Source of the DNA: SAR202 cluster bacterium
GTDB lineage: Bacteria; Chloroflexota; Dehalococcoidia; Lucifugimonadales; OSU-TB39
Direction of reading: 5' to 3'
DNA length: 64,000 nt
Assembly (NCBI GenBank): GCA_009392195.1
Contig: VFGY01000037.1
Span: 1-64,000, forward strand
In this document: in pieces, positions 305 through 35,402 of the stretch
Numbering within the stretch: the stretch's first letter is position 1
How the letters are laid out: each line of letters opens with the position of its first letter
Made by a program: the position numbers and the translations under genes
Notes under the pieces: generated by a model
Seen by the model: the letters and a program-made list of their open reading frames with translations, nothing else
What the model was told of the DNA's origin: nothing
Database searches by the model: none

Positions 305-435
305 AACACTTATTGGATATGGAATATTATGGGATCGACTGTCGGTATGATTATTGGAGGTATAGGTATTTTATAGTAGTTATCATTGGATTTGTCCTCT
401 AGAGTATGGACTATAGTAGAGAGGAGGGAGATTAA
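305..435 (+). pseudogene. decayed copy of the MGYRG single-TM micropeptide family
   Basis: Two overlapping frames carry recognisable remnants. Frame one (305-376) encodes a hydrophobic stretch with IMGSTVGMII, resembling IMAGSTIVAII of the micropeptide at 35100-35210. Frame two (361-435) encodes FIVVIIGFVL, an in-frame TAG, then SMDYSREEGD and TAA. This parallels FVVVVIGFVFYSMGYRGQGGD of the ORF at 35292-35402. Across 63 aligned bases ending at the stop I count about 14 mismatches. The TAG replaces a tyrosine codon, and a frame change is needed to join the halves, so the copy appears inactivated. No start codon with a Shine-Dalgarno sequence was found. Confidence 0.6.
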
Positions 436-581: not shown

Positions 582-1130
582 ATGACAGATAAAATGGTTA
601 ATGGGATATTGTTTATAATAGCTGGCCTGGGTTCAATGGTTGCTTATATTGCTCTAGGTGAAACAGGACTTTTAGATGCGGGGCATACAGAAAAATTTGC
701 AGCTTATGCATTACTTACTCTACCAATAGCGTTTATGATGATAAAGAATGTTACAAGAAATACTTACATTGACGCAGGGTTAATAATGATAGTCGTTGGT
801 TTGAGTATAGGGCTTGTTTCAGATGCTATAAATAGTGCAGAATTGGGTGGTGATTCTGACTTAATTGGAGAAGCAATTGCATGGACAGGATGGTCTATTA
901 TGTATCTTGGAATATCCATAACTGGAATAGGATATTTGCGAACCGACCTTTTCCCTAATTGGCTATCAGGTTTATTAACAGTTGCCTCCTTTGCAATGTT
1001 TGCTTTTCTTGCTTTCTCAACTACTGAGATATTAACAAACAACGGTGATAATATTGTGCCGCCTTTATGGGGGATTAATAGTCTCGTTTTGGTTGTCTTG
1101 GGAATATTCACCATGAGACGAAAAGAGTGA
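582..1130 (+). CDS. multi-pass membrane protein of unknown function
   Basis: A 182-residue protein with about six hydrophobic segments (roughly residues 5-25, 40-55, 62-82, 96-116, 124-144 and 160-178) and a positively charged end, MRRKE. The ATG has an AAGAGG ribosome-binding site seven bases upstream. I do not recognise the family. The second half (a W-x-LG-IG-L helix, a PxW turn and the MRRxE tail) loosely resembles the membrane protein at 34249-34890. Both lie downstream of copies of the same micropeptide family, here a decayed one. No catalytic or binding motif is visible. It is followed by tRNA-Asp on the same strand. Confidence 0.75.
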   Translation: MTDKMVNGILFIIAGLGSMVAYIALGETGLLDAGHTEKFAAYALLTLPIAFMMIKNVTRNTYIDAGLIMIVVGLSIGLVSDAINSAELGGDSDLIGEAIAWTGWSIMYLGISITGIGYLRTDLFPNWLSGLLTVASFAMFAFLAFSTTEILTNNGDNIVPPLWGINSLVLVVLGIFTMRRKE

Positions 1131-17701: not shown

Positions 17702-18013
17702 ATGAAAATAAGAGTAAATGACACAGTATTGATAACCAAAGGGAGAGACAGGGGTAAAACCGCCAAAGTTCAGAAAACCTTACCCAAAACTAATCAAGTT
17801 TTGATTGAAGGCATAAATTCTGTTTTCAAACATGCTAAAGCGTCTGCTACGGTAAGGCAAGCAGGAATAATACAAAAAGAAATGCCAATCAATGCATCTA
17901 ACACACTCCTTATTTGTACTCACTGCTCAACCCCAACCAAAGTCAAATTTAAAATCCTCGCTGATGGAAATAAAGCTAGGATTTGTTCAGATTGCAAGGA
18001 AGTAATAGAGTGA
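17702..18013 (+). CDS. rplX: 50S ribosomal protein uL24
   Basis: A 103-residue KOW-domain protein. [22 protein letters not shown] is the KOW region. The C-terminal half carries two Cys pairs, CTHC and CSDC, forming a probable zinc ribbon, as in many bacterial L24 proteins. Its stop overlaps the rplE GTG by four bases (GTGA). Confidence 0.96.
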
Positions 18014-18879
18014 CAACCGAAAATAAAAACACAGATAACAAAGAAGATACCGAAAGTAAGTCGACTAAAAAGTCTAAATCGGCTTCCACATCGAAGGTAA
18101 CTCGCAGTTCATCTAAAGATAAGACTCCATCCAAAGCTACAAAGTCAACTGCAGCTTCTAAGGCCGGTGCTAAAGCTACAAAGTCAACTGCAGCTTCTAA
18201 GGCCGGTGCTAAAGCTACAAAGTCAACTGCAGCTTCTAAGGCCGATGCTAAAACTACGAATCCAACTGCAGATTCTAAAACTACAAAAACAAAAAACAAA
18301 GTAATATCTAAAGAACCTACTGCTATTGAGAAACATTTCCGTACAAACGTTTCTCCTGCATTGATTGAAGAATTTAAATATTCAAGTAATATGCAGGTTC
18401 CTAGAATTGAGAAAATCGTTTTGAATATAGGACTTGGTGAAGCGTTAATTAATTCTAGAGCACTAGAAAATGCCGTAAGAGACTTAAGTTTAATATCTGG
18501 TCAAAAACCAGTTCCCACTAAAGCAAAAAAATCAATAGCAACCTATAAATTAAGGGAAGGGCAAATTATAGGAGTTATGGTAACTTTGCGTAAAAGACGA
18601 ATGTACGAGTTTTTAGAAAGATTAATCATCTCTGCTCTACCACGTATCAGAGATTTCCATGGTATACCGGCTGGTTCTTTTGACGGAAGAGGTAATTACT
18701 CTCTAGGAGTTAGGGAACAAATAATTTTCCCTGAAATTGAATATGGTTCAGTCGATAAAATGAGAGGCCTACAAATCTCGATTGTTACTTCATCTAATAC
18801 AAACGAGGAAAGTAAACGCCTATTGGAATTATTAGGTATGCCATTTGAAAGGCAAGATGACTCAAGAAAAATTGCGTGA
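18010..18879 (+). CDS. rplE: 50S ribosomal protein uL5 with long Lys/Ala/Ser/Thr-rich N-terminal repeat extension
   Basis: A 289-residue protein when started at the GTG at 18010, which overlaps the rplX stop (GTGA) and follows AAGGAAG by eight bases; an earlier ATG at 17983 would lie deeper inside rplX. The last 180 residues are a normal L5 ([54 protein letters not shown]). The first 105 or so are an added low-complexity basic domain with 13-residue repeats [13 protein letters not shown], like histone H1 or AlgP-type tails. L5 binds 5S rRNA; what the extension does is unknown. Confidence 0.94.
18133..18249 (+). repeat. 39-base tandem repeat inside rplE
   Basis: Three consecutive 39-base units at 18133-18171, 18172-18210 and 18211-18249 encode [13 protein letters not shown], the third with Asp for Gly. 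Units one and two are identical base for base, and a fourth degenerate unit follows. Perfect identity in units one and two suggests a recent slippage or unequal-crossover duplication, so copy number may vary between strains. Confidence 0.92.
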
Positions 18880-25736: not shown

Positions 25737-26651
25737 TTGGACAAATCACCAAACAACTTATCAAATGTATTTGAACCAAACGGGATTAAGTGGATATTGA
25801 ATGAAGCTTTTTCTATATCTATAGCCCGTTTTAAATTTTTTGTTGCTCTTGTAGCAATAATTCAAGGTCCTGCCATAATCCTATCTTTATATTTTTCTGG
25901 GTTAACAGAGCAGGAAAACAGGTATGACATTATTTTGCAAATAATCAGCTATTTGACAGCTTTCCTAGCTATGACTTTTAGTTCCGCTCTGATAATCGCA
26001 GCTATAGGGCAACATTATGCACATAATAAAGTTACTTTAAGTTTTTGCTTCAAAAGAACATGGTGGAGAGTCCTATCCATTAGTTTTTGGGCCATTTTAT
26101 TAACTACCCCATTATTTGCTATCACTTATCTAGCAAACAATGCATTTGACACTCAACCAAATACTTTATCAATGTTAGCTGTGGTAATTGTCATGTTAAT
26201 ATTTATACCTTTTCTAATTTACACGTCATTCTATACTCAAACTGTGATTATAGAAGGTTTTGATTTGTTAAATGGGATAAAAAGGAGTGCTACTCTAATA
26301 CATCGTAAATTACTTAAAGTTTTTACAGCGATTATTCTCATAGGGTTACTTGCTATTGGGCTATCTGTTATCGTAAATATTCCATTCGCATTATTAGAGT
26401 TATCTGAATTAGATAATAGCTTAAATGTTGGAAATGCCAATTCATCTATCCTTTTTTATCTAATCTTGTTTTTGAGAAATTTTGTTGATTCGATAATAGT
26501 TTTCCCAATACTCATAACCGCAGGCACACTATTATACTTCGACATAAGATCTGACAAAGAAAACTACAACATTAATAATTTATTAGCTGATATAAATTTT
26601 TCAAACCACAGTAGGTCAAAACTACACAAAGAATACACAATAAATAACTAA
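25737..26651 (+). CDS. multi-pass membrane protein inserted in the alpha operon, function unknown
   Basis: A 304-residue protein with about six hydrophobic helices (near residues 28-50, 62-85, 108-130, 142-165, 195-222 and 238-262), starting at TTG three bases after rpsK and ending 11 bases before rpsD. The region LLNGIKRSATLIHRKLLKVF followed by a hydrophobic helix resembles the repeat seen in the membrane domain of glycerophosphodiester phosphodiesterase-like proteins (alternating amphipathic R-S-x-x-L elements and helices), but that assignment is tentative. No catalytic residues are visible. Its position and spacing imply co-transcription with ribosomal genes and rpoA. Confidence 0.8.
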   Translation: MDKSPNNLSNVFEPNGIKWILNEAFSISIARFKFFVALVAIIQGPAIILSLYFSGLTEQENRYDIILQIISYLTAFLAMTFSSALIIAAIGQHYAHNKVTLSFCFKRTWWRVLSISFWAILLTTPLFAITYLANNAFDTQPNTLSMLAVVIVMLIFIPFLIYTSFYTQTVIIEGFDLLNGIKRSATLIHRKLLKVFTAIILIGLLAIGLSVIVNIPFALLELSELDNSLNVGNANSSILFYLILFLRNFVDSIIVFPILITAGTLLYFDIRSDKENYNINNLLADINFSNHSRSKLHKEYTINN

Positions 26652-34248: not shown

Positions 34249-34890
34249 TTACTCCTGTGCTCTTCTCATGAACAAAACCACACCCGAAGCTACCGCTGCT
34301 ACAAGAGTAAGCATCCAAATAATGAATCCTGCATCTCCGAGAATCAAGACCCCAGGTATACCAACTACCCCAGTAACCAGCATAAGCCCACCTATCCAGA
34401 TAGGCAGAAACCCTTTTTCCATAACTAGTCCTATTCCCAGAAGGACAACCCCAAGAGCCCAGAACACTGGCATACCTGAGAATATACCGTCAGCAGTCAT
34501 GTCAATTGTAATAGCCGTTTCTATAATTCCTTCATCAAACAAATCCATAGCCGCCAAAGACATTCCCATACCGATAATCGGGACTGCTATTAGGACTGTG
34601 AAAATAGACGAAGATAAACTCCCGAAAGCGGCACCACTTCCCTGTAAAGACCTTCCTAAAAACGCAATCCCCAACATAGTTCCCACGAGGAAAAAAGTTC
34701 CTGGTATATTTATTAGATAGGCAAGGGCTTTTTCTCCCGAGCTAAGCTGCAGCCAAGCCAAAGCTGCCTCTCTGCCCTCTAGATTAGAATCAATTTCCCC
34801 AAGTAGAACTGGTTCAAGTATCATCCATACAAGAAGCATCAATACTGGACAAATCATGAGTATTAGTGAGTAAAACATACGAGTATTCAT
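34249..34890 (-). CDS. multi-pass membrane protein of unknown function, GC-richer than neighbours
   Basis: A 213-residue protein with about six helices (near residues 5-27, 55-80, 90-112, 140-158, 163-185 and 188-207) and a basic tail MRRAQE. GAGGTG precedes the ATG. One 60-base line inside it has 30 G/C bases against about 20 in nearby genes, suggesting acquisition from a different background or unusual constraint. Its last three helices loosely resemble those of the protein at 582-1130. It lies 130 bases downstream of the four micropeptide ORFs on the same strand. Function not recognised. Confidence 0.8.
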   Translation of the reverse strand: MNTRMFYSLILMICPVLMLLVWMILEPVLLGEIDSNLEGREAALAWLQLSSGEKALAYLINIPGTFFLVGTMLGIAFLGRSLQGSGAAFGSLSSSIFTVLIAVPIIGMGMSLAAMDLFDEGIIETAITIDMTADGIFSGMPVFWALGVVLLGIGLVMEKGFLPIWIGGLMLVTGVVGIPGVLILGDAGFIIWMLTLVAAVASGVVLFMRRAQE

Positions 34891-35019: not shown

Positions 35020-35106
35020 CTATGTATTCCCCCAAATCATAAGTCCGACACCAGCAAGAACAATAAAAAAAAGAAGTTGGATTGCTCTATGGAATTCCAT
35101 TAACAT
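35020..35106 (-). CDS. micro-ORF D: 28-residue single-TM peptide
   Basis: Encodes MLMEFHRAIQ, a hydrophobic segment LLFFIVLAGVGLMIW, and GNT. The start is ATG 35106 or the in-frame ATG 35100; AAGGATAGG upstream favours one of these. The start overlaps the last codons of micro-ORF C. It could be the last small member of a polycistronic unit that continues to the membrane protein at 34890. Too short for homology by eye. Confidence 0.45.
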   Translation of the reverse strand: MLMEFHRAIQLLFFIVLAGVGLMIWGNT

Positions 35107-35210
35107 CCTATCCTTCCCCTATAACCCATTTTGTAAAGGACAACCCAAATGATGGCTACTATTGTACTTCCAGCCATAATCCATATAGTAAGAACTATGT
35201 CGCCTTTCAC
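35100..35210 (-). CDS. micro-ORF C: 36-residue single-TM peptide with MGYRG tail
   Basis: Starting at GTG 35210 (or the TTG one codon earlier) it encodes MKGDIVLTIWIM, a helix AGSTIVAIIWVVLY, and the tail KMGYRGRIGC. The tail and the preceding V-x-Y-x motif match micro-ORF A. No strong Shine-Dalgarno is present, but the start lies right after the stop of micro-ORF B, in the same frame, so termination-reinitiation is plausible. A decayed relative is at 305-435. Function unknown. Confidence 0.55.
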   Translation of the reverse strand: MKGDIVLTIWIMAGSTIVAIIWVVLYKMGYRGRIGC

Positions 35211-35213
35211 CAA

Positions 35214-35288
35214 TCATTGAACATATCTATAAGAAACATATATTCCTACTATAGTTAATATCGCAAAAAGTCCAAATACACCTTTCAT
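35214..35288 (-). CDS. micro-ORF B: 24-residue single-TM peptide
   Basis: ATG at 35288 is preceded on the minus strand by GGGGGAGA about seven bases upstream, a strong ribosome-binding site that overlaps the end of micro-ORF A. It encodes MKGVFGLFAILTIVGIYVSY then RYVQ. The shape (short N-terminus, one helix, basic end) resembles the small accessory subunits known in membrane complexes, but no family is recognised. Confidence 0.5.
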   Translation of the reverse strand: MKGVFGLFAILTIVGIYVSYRYVQ

Positions 35289-35291
35289 TAT

Positions 35292-35402
35292 TTAATCTCC
35301 CCCTTGCCCTCTATAACCCATAGAGTAGAAGACAAATCCAATGACAACTACTACAAAAAAACCAAAAATCCCAACGGCAGTCCATACATCAATTTCTATA
35401 AT
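35292..35402 (-). CDS. micro-ORF A: about 36-residue single-TM peptide with MGYRG tail, non-canonical start
   Basis: The frame reads IIEIDVWTAVGIFG, a helix FFVVVVIGFVFY, and SMGYRGQGGD. There is no ATG, GTG or TTG at the right place. An AAGGA at about 35411-35415 sits eight bases before ATT at 35402, so ATT (the infC-type start) is the best candidate. Homology to micro-ORF C 192 bases away, and to the decayed copy at 361-435, supports its being a real coding unit. Confidence 0.5.
   Translation of the reverse strand: MIEIDVWTAVGIFGFFVVVVIGFVFYSMGYRGQGGD

What the first reader, a model, noticed from the sequence alone, without database searches (positions are those of the whole stretch)
35020..35402. 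Cluster of four single-TM micropeptide genes, two of them paralogous with an MGYRG tail
Between a DUF192 gene and a membrane-protein gene, the minus strand holds four consecutive short frames (36, 24, 36 and 28 residues), each a single hydrophobic helix with short ends. Frames A and C share the end Y-x-MGYRG-x-x-G and a V-rich helix, with equivalent bases 192 apart, so the region contains a tandem duplication kept in coding form. B has a strong ribosome-binding site. Such peptides are missed by standard gene calling and resemble in size the small accessory subunits of membrane complexes. No known family was recognised.
Basis: seen in the sequence. Interest (0 to 1): 0.72.

Follow-up and report, generated by a model that had tools for sequence, protein, structure and literature searches.

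The report
Broken copies of a small membrane gene
What looked like four tiny membrane-peptide genes in a marine SAR202-type bacterium is mostly the broken remains of one rare, apparently horizontally moved small gene for a two-helix membrane protein: two of the 'peptides' are its halves cut by a stop codon, a third is a start-less fragment of another copy, and the fourth has no known relative.

Summary
The open frames are in the DNA, but they are probably not four micropeptide genes. Frames B and C share one reading frame and are separated only by a TGA at 35214-35216. A same-order relative (SAR202 OSU_TB57, VFHP01000025.1) has one uninterrupted 68-residue frame covering B+C, with TGG (Trp) at that codon, 64-66% identical. 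A third genome of another order has the same protein with a loop deletion and a TAG near its end. A resembles only the C half, has no ATG/GTG/TTG start, and its closest relative is a further copy inside this window (318-435, + strand) that is frameshifted and carries a TAG. D has no detectable relative. TGA is an ordinary stop here. Across the three genomes the gene has low synonymous divergence (dS 0.4-0.5), while control genes, one on the relative's own contig, are saturated; nonsynonymous divergence is nearly as high as synonymous. Neighbours differ everywhere. This fits a patchy, horizontally spread two-helix membrane gene under weak selection, surviving here as damaged tandem copies. No known family matches. 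The intact protein's function is unknown; a membrane-active accessory or toxin-like hairpin is my guess. Synteny gives no support to an accessory-subunit role.

The parts
35100..35288 (-). B+C: one reading frame for a two-helix membrane protein of about 62 aa, interrupted once by TGA
   Evidence: Same frame. An intact 68-aa homologue spans it in VFHP01000025.1/G053; a second homologue in G327.
35214..35288 (-). B: N-terminal half (first helix and start of the conserved loop), ATG start, GGGGGAG upstream
   Evidence: 65% identical to the N half of the G053 protein
35214..35216 (-). In-frame TGA, where the G053 homologue has TGG (Trp)
   Evidence: TGA ends 11 of 49 genes checked in the window.
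35100..35213 (-). C: C-terminal half (rest of loop, second helix, YKMGYRG tail). TTG/GTG directly after the TGA, so reinitiation is possible
   Evidence: 61% identical to the C half of the G053 protein
35292..35402 (-). A: open fragment like the C half only. No ATG/GTG/TTG start; an ATT at 35402-35400 follows a TAAGGA stretch
318..435 (+). A further, damaged copy of the A-type fragment: extra 8 nt and 1 nt relative to A, TAG at 400-402
   Evidence: E 0.0015; 79% DNA identity, E 1.4e-9; 0 of 200 shuffles
35020..35106 (-). D: 28-codon hydrophobic frame overlapping the end of C; no relatives; coding status undetermined
   Evidence: shuffles give on average 0.15 frames this hydrophobic per cluster-sized stretch

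Best explanation
The cluster is the remains of one or more copies of a small, rarely found gene for a two-helix inner-membrane protein (about 62-68 aa; helix, conserved loop SYRYVxWLVKGD, helix, basic YKMGY tail) that reached several Chloroflexota lineages by horizontal transfer. Here B+C is one copy stopped at a Trp codon (TGG to TGA), A is the 3' part of another copy, and the copy at 318-435 is further decayed. D is unassigned. Shown: common frame, the homologous intact protein, damage in several copies, anomalously low synonymous divergence, different neighbours. Inferred: horizontal transfer as the cause, loss of function here, two-helix topology. Guessed: the intact protein is a membrane-active hairpin of selfish or accessory type (toxin-like or regulatory) and not a subunit of a neighbouring complex. 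I give the decayed-gene reading about 0.65 and the toxin-like guess about 0.2.
For: B and C share a frame; G053 has one ORF across it with TGG at the stop (BLASTP 3e-19 with the stop masked; tblastn in named contig VFHP01000025.1). The conserved YRYVxWLVKGD loop spans the stop. G327 has a 7-codon loop deletion and a TAG at the MGY position. A lacks a usual start, and its nearest copy is frameshifted with a TAG. TGA is a normal stop. DNA identity 65-75%, dS 0.42-0.50, dN 0.24-0.46, against saturated dS in L13 and in threonine synthase from the same G053 contig (Fisher p from 2e-8 to 4e-5). dN versus dS is not significantly different in any pair (p 0.06, 0.68, 1.0). Found in only 3 genomes among the whole-genome searches of the order, class and phylum. 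No shared neighbours.
Against: The G053 copy is intact. Net length differences in B+C are multiples of three (window vs G053 6 and 3 nt; G053 vs G327 21 nt), and window vs G053 shows a weak excess of synonymous change (dN/dS 0.48, p 0.06), so the protein was coding for part of its history. C could be translated by reinitiation at TTG/GTG just after the TGA, and A at ATT. A single-base assembly error at the TGA cannot be excluded. Low synonymous divergence could also reflect nucleotide-level constraint, although no Rfam match or unusually stable fold was found.
Confidence: 0.65

Rival explanations
1. Gene fission: B and C are now two functional, translationally coupled single-helix peptides that pair in the membrane, with C started at TTG/GTG right after the TGA; A is a third peptide started at ATT.
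For: TGATTGGTG places TTG and GTG directly after the stop; B has a strong ribosome-binding-site-like stretch; a TAAGGA stretch lies before the ATT of A. No further damage within B+C. C-half divergence from G053 is mostly synonymous (dS 0.77, dN 0.25).
Against: The most conserved stretch spans the stop. B-half dN is about equal to dS (0.23 vs 0.20, few sites). No other genome shows the split form. A has no standard start, and its nearest copy is broken.
Confidence: 0.17
2. The stop is an assembly or sequencing error, or is read through, and B+C is an intact two-helix gene.
For: One G-to-A difference separates TGA from TGG; the rest of the frame is intact. The assembly is in 67 contigs with 9.2% estimated contamination.
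Against: No reads available. TGA is used as a stop in 11 of 49 genes. Damage in G327 and in copy 318-435 shows decay is common in this family.
Confidence: 0.1
3. A non-coding repeated DNA or RNA element; the open frames are incidental.
For: Synonymous sites unusually conserved and dN close to dS; copies dispersed.
Against: Open frame over 68 codons in G053, net indels in multiples of three, hydrophobic pattern kept, similarity confined to the frame. No Rfam match and no unusual fold.
Confidence: 0.06
4. Four functional micropeptides acting as accessory subunits of a membrane complex.
For: All on one strand, hydrophobic, closely spaced.
Against: B and C are halves of one protein; A has no standard start; D has no relatives; no conserved neighbours.
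Confidence: 0.02

Closest known systems
Unannotated 68-aa ORF in SAR202 cluster bacterium OSU_TB57, VFHP01000025.1 (L099:5989-6195)
   Same: Homologous over B+C, 64-66% identical
   Different: Uninterrupted; Trp instead of stop; unrelated neighbours; no A-like or D-like frames found next to it
Type I toxin peptides with repeated small hydrophobic genes (Fst/Ldr superfamily, PMC7472228)
   Same: Very small hydrophobic membrane proteins
   Different: Those are single-helix peptides of about 30-35 aa with a regulatory RNA; this is a longer two-helix frame; no antisense promoter above chance, no family match, and the review says Fst/Ldr was not broadly spread horizontally
Small oxidase subunits CydX/CydY/CydZ (PMC4325964)
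   Same: Small hydrophobic proteins missed by gene callers
   Different: Those are defined by sitting in cydAB operons and by a conserved helix; no oxidase genes and no conserved neighbours here

Membership tests
Two-helix family of the G053 68-aa ORF (defined here) | Sequence homology over the full length | tested here: met
Two-helix family of the G053 68-aa ORF (defined here) | Uninterrupted reading frame | tested here: not met
   TGA at 35214-35216; so this is a damaged or split member
Two-helix family of the G053 68-aa ORF (defined here) | Two membrane helices with a loop | tested here: inconclusive
   Hydropathy fits two helices, but AlphaFold2 with 2 sequences gave one long helix 2-53 (pLDDT 76, pTM 0.40)
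CydX-type small subunits | Located in an oxidase (cydAB) operon | tested here: not met
   Neighbours are DUF192, an unassigned membrane gene and a tRNA; different in G053 and G327
Type I toxins (Fst/Ldr and others) | Match to a known toxin family | tested here: not met
   No Pfam, NCBIfam or PHROGs match of note
Type I toxins (Fst/Ldr and others) | Antisense or regulatory RNA antitoxin | tested here: inconclusive
   Promoter-like sites not above chance, no Rfam match; expression not testable
Type I toxins (Fst/Ldr and others) | Growth arrest on overexpression | not testable with these tools
   Needs an expression test
Micropeptide gene cluster (reader) | Four independent translated frames | tested here: not met
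   B and C are one interrupted frame; A has no standard start

The most novel reading that the evidence does not exclude
A two-helix membrane protein has been split in this lineage into two translationally coupled single-helix peptides that still assemble, alongside a paralogous C-half peptide: a natural gene fission of a helical hairpin at a Trp codon, in a family that moves horizontally among marine Chloroflexota.
Probability: 0.13. Interest if true: 0.5.

Novelty: new member of a known kind. Interest (0 to 1): 0.2.

Why it matters
It corrects a plausible-looking micropeptide cluster: comparison with one relative shows that adjacent short hydrophobic frames can be halves of one interrupted gene. 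It also points to an uncatalogued, very patchy two-helix membrane protein whose synonymous divergence is far below that of the genomes carrying it, which would be worth following in metagenomes for its vector and function.

Tried and rejected
Weak hits of the A/C profile in other genomes (for example L027, L028, L030, L033, L034, L040, L045, L048, L049, L051) are short matches in other reading frames or inside larger unrelated frames and were treated as chance; for minus-strand places the translations were read on the wrong strand, and only L025 was re-read on the right one. D as the N-half of a further tandem copy, suggested by similar spacing (A to C 192 nt, B to D 182 nt), was tested and not supported: DNA at chance, protein 29 of 2000 shuffles against G053 and 479 of 2000 against B. 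The two unassigned membrane proteins (34249-34890 and 582-1130), each next to a copy, are not clearly related to each other. TGA recoded as Trp genome-wide was rejected. A misbinned G053 contig from a close relative of this genome was rejected, because the threonine synthase on that contig is saturated at synonymous sites. Phages, plasmids and viral contigs gave nothing, and solved structures nothing of note. The structure model was uninformative about a hairpin, so no fold search was run. In one search the G053/G327 rates used a mis-framed sequence; the corrected values are.

Full report
What is there. B (ATG, 24 aa), C (TTG/GTG, 36-37 aa) and D (ATG, 28 aa) are as stated. A is open for 37 codons but contains no ATG, GTG or TTG that could serve as its start upstream of the helix; an ATT at 35402-35400 has a TAAGGA stretch upstream. 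A and C share a repeat of 46 nt at 74% with 192-nt spacing. Hydrophobic frames this frequent are unlikely by chance: two or more in 0.6% of shuffles.

B and C are one gene. They lie in the same frame with a single TGA between them (35214-35216). A profile of A and C found a homologue in another family of the same order (G053), which on inspection is a single 68-aa ORF reading through B and C with TGG at the stop. The full-length alignment is 66% identical, and the conserved loop YRYVxWLVKGD spans the stop (BLASTP 3e-19 with the stop masked). The G053 contig is VFHP01000025.1, SAR202 cluster bacterium OSU_TB57. TGA ends 11 of 49 genes checked in the window, so it is a stop here.

Other copies. 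A third homologue in a different order of the class (G327) lacks seven codons of the loop and has a TAG at the MGY position, leaving a 56-aa frame. In the window itself, 318-435 on the + strand is a relative of A (79% DNA identity over 67 nt, E 1.4e-9; full-length alignment) with an extra 8 nt and 1 nt and an in-frame TAG at 400-402. A, and this copy, correspond only to the C half. D has no relative in 247 genomes of the order and no convincing similarity to B.

Evolution. Between G000, G053 and G327 the gene is 65-75% identical in DNA with dS 0.42-0.50 and dN 0.24-0.46 (first computed). Control genes between the same genomes are saturated: L13 (dS 3.4 for G000/G053, 2.4 for G000/G327) and threonine synthase taken from the same G053 contig (synonymous difference 0.78). 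Fisher tests on synonymous differences give p from 2e-8 to 4e-5. So the gene is much younger in these genomes than the genomes' own split, which I read as horizontal transfer. Nonsynonymous change is not significantly slower than synonymous change in any pair (p 0.06, 0.68, 1.0), which I read as weak or lost constraint. The numbers of sites are small (about 40 synonymous). Net indels in multiples of three and the intact G053 frame say it was coding. Searches of 250 genomes of the order, 393 and 378 of the class, and 400 of the phylum (overlapping sets) found only these three; phages, plasmids and viral contigs found none.

Context. Neighbours differ in every case: DUF192 and an orphan membrane gene here; an adenylate-kinase-like gene and a 94-aa protein in G053; a small SEC-C-like frame with McrBC-like genes downstream in G327. 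Family names for G053 and G327 neighbours are read from sequence, not from a profile search. Nothing supports a role as a subunit of a particular complex.

Mechanism. Hydropathy suggests two helices joined by a short loop with a basic C-terminal tail. AlphaFold2 with two sequences gave one long helix of moderate confidence and does not decide. No Pfam, NCBIfam, PHROGs, Rfam or PDB match was found that could be taken seriously. My guess is a membrane-active accessory or toxin-like hairpin carried on mobile or flexible DNA; this is inference only.

Verdict. The frames and the A/C paralogy are real. The interpretation as four micropeptide genes is most likely wrong: B and C are halves of one interrupted gene, A is a fragment, and D is unresolved. 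A split but functional version is not excluded.

Noticed in passing
window 17983-18879 (+): The ribosomal protein L5 region has an N-terminal extension of about 100 residues made of Lys/Ser/Thr/Ala repeats ([12 protein letters not shown] repeated).
   Followed up: no
window 25737-26651 (+): A 304-aa multi-helix membrane protein gene sits inside the ribosomal protein operon, between the S11-like and S4-like genes.
   Followed up: no
window 34249-34890 (-) and 582-1130 (+): Two multi-helix membrane proteins without Pfam match, each lying beside a copy of the small gene; not clearly related to each other.
   Followed up: partly
L108:6687-10500 (G327): McrB-like and McrC-like restriction genes lie about 1 kb downstream of the G327 copy, suggesting a flexible, defence-rich region (read from sequence only).
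   Followed up: no
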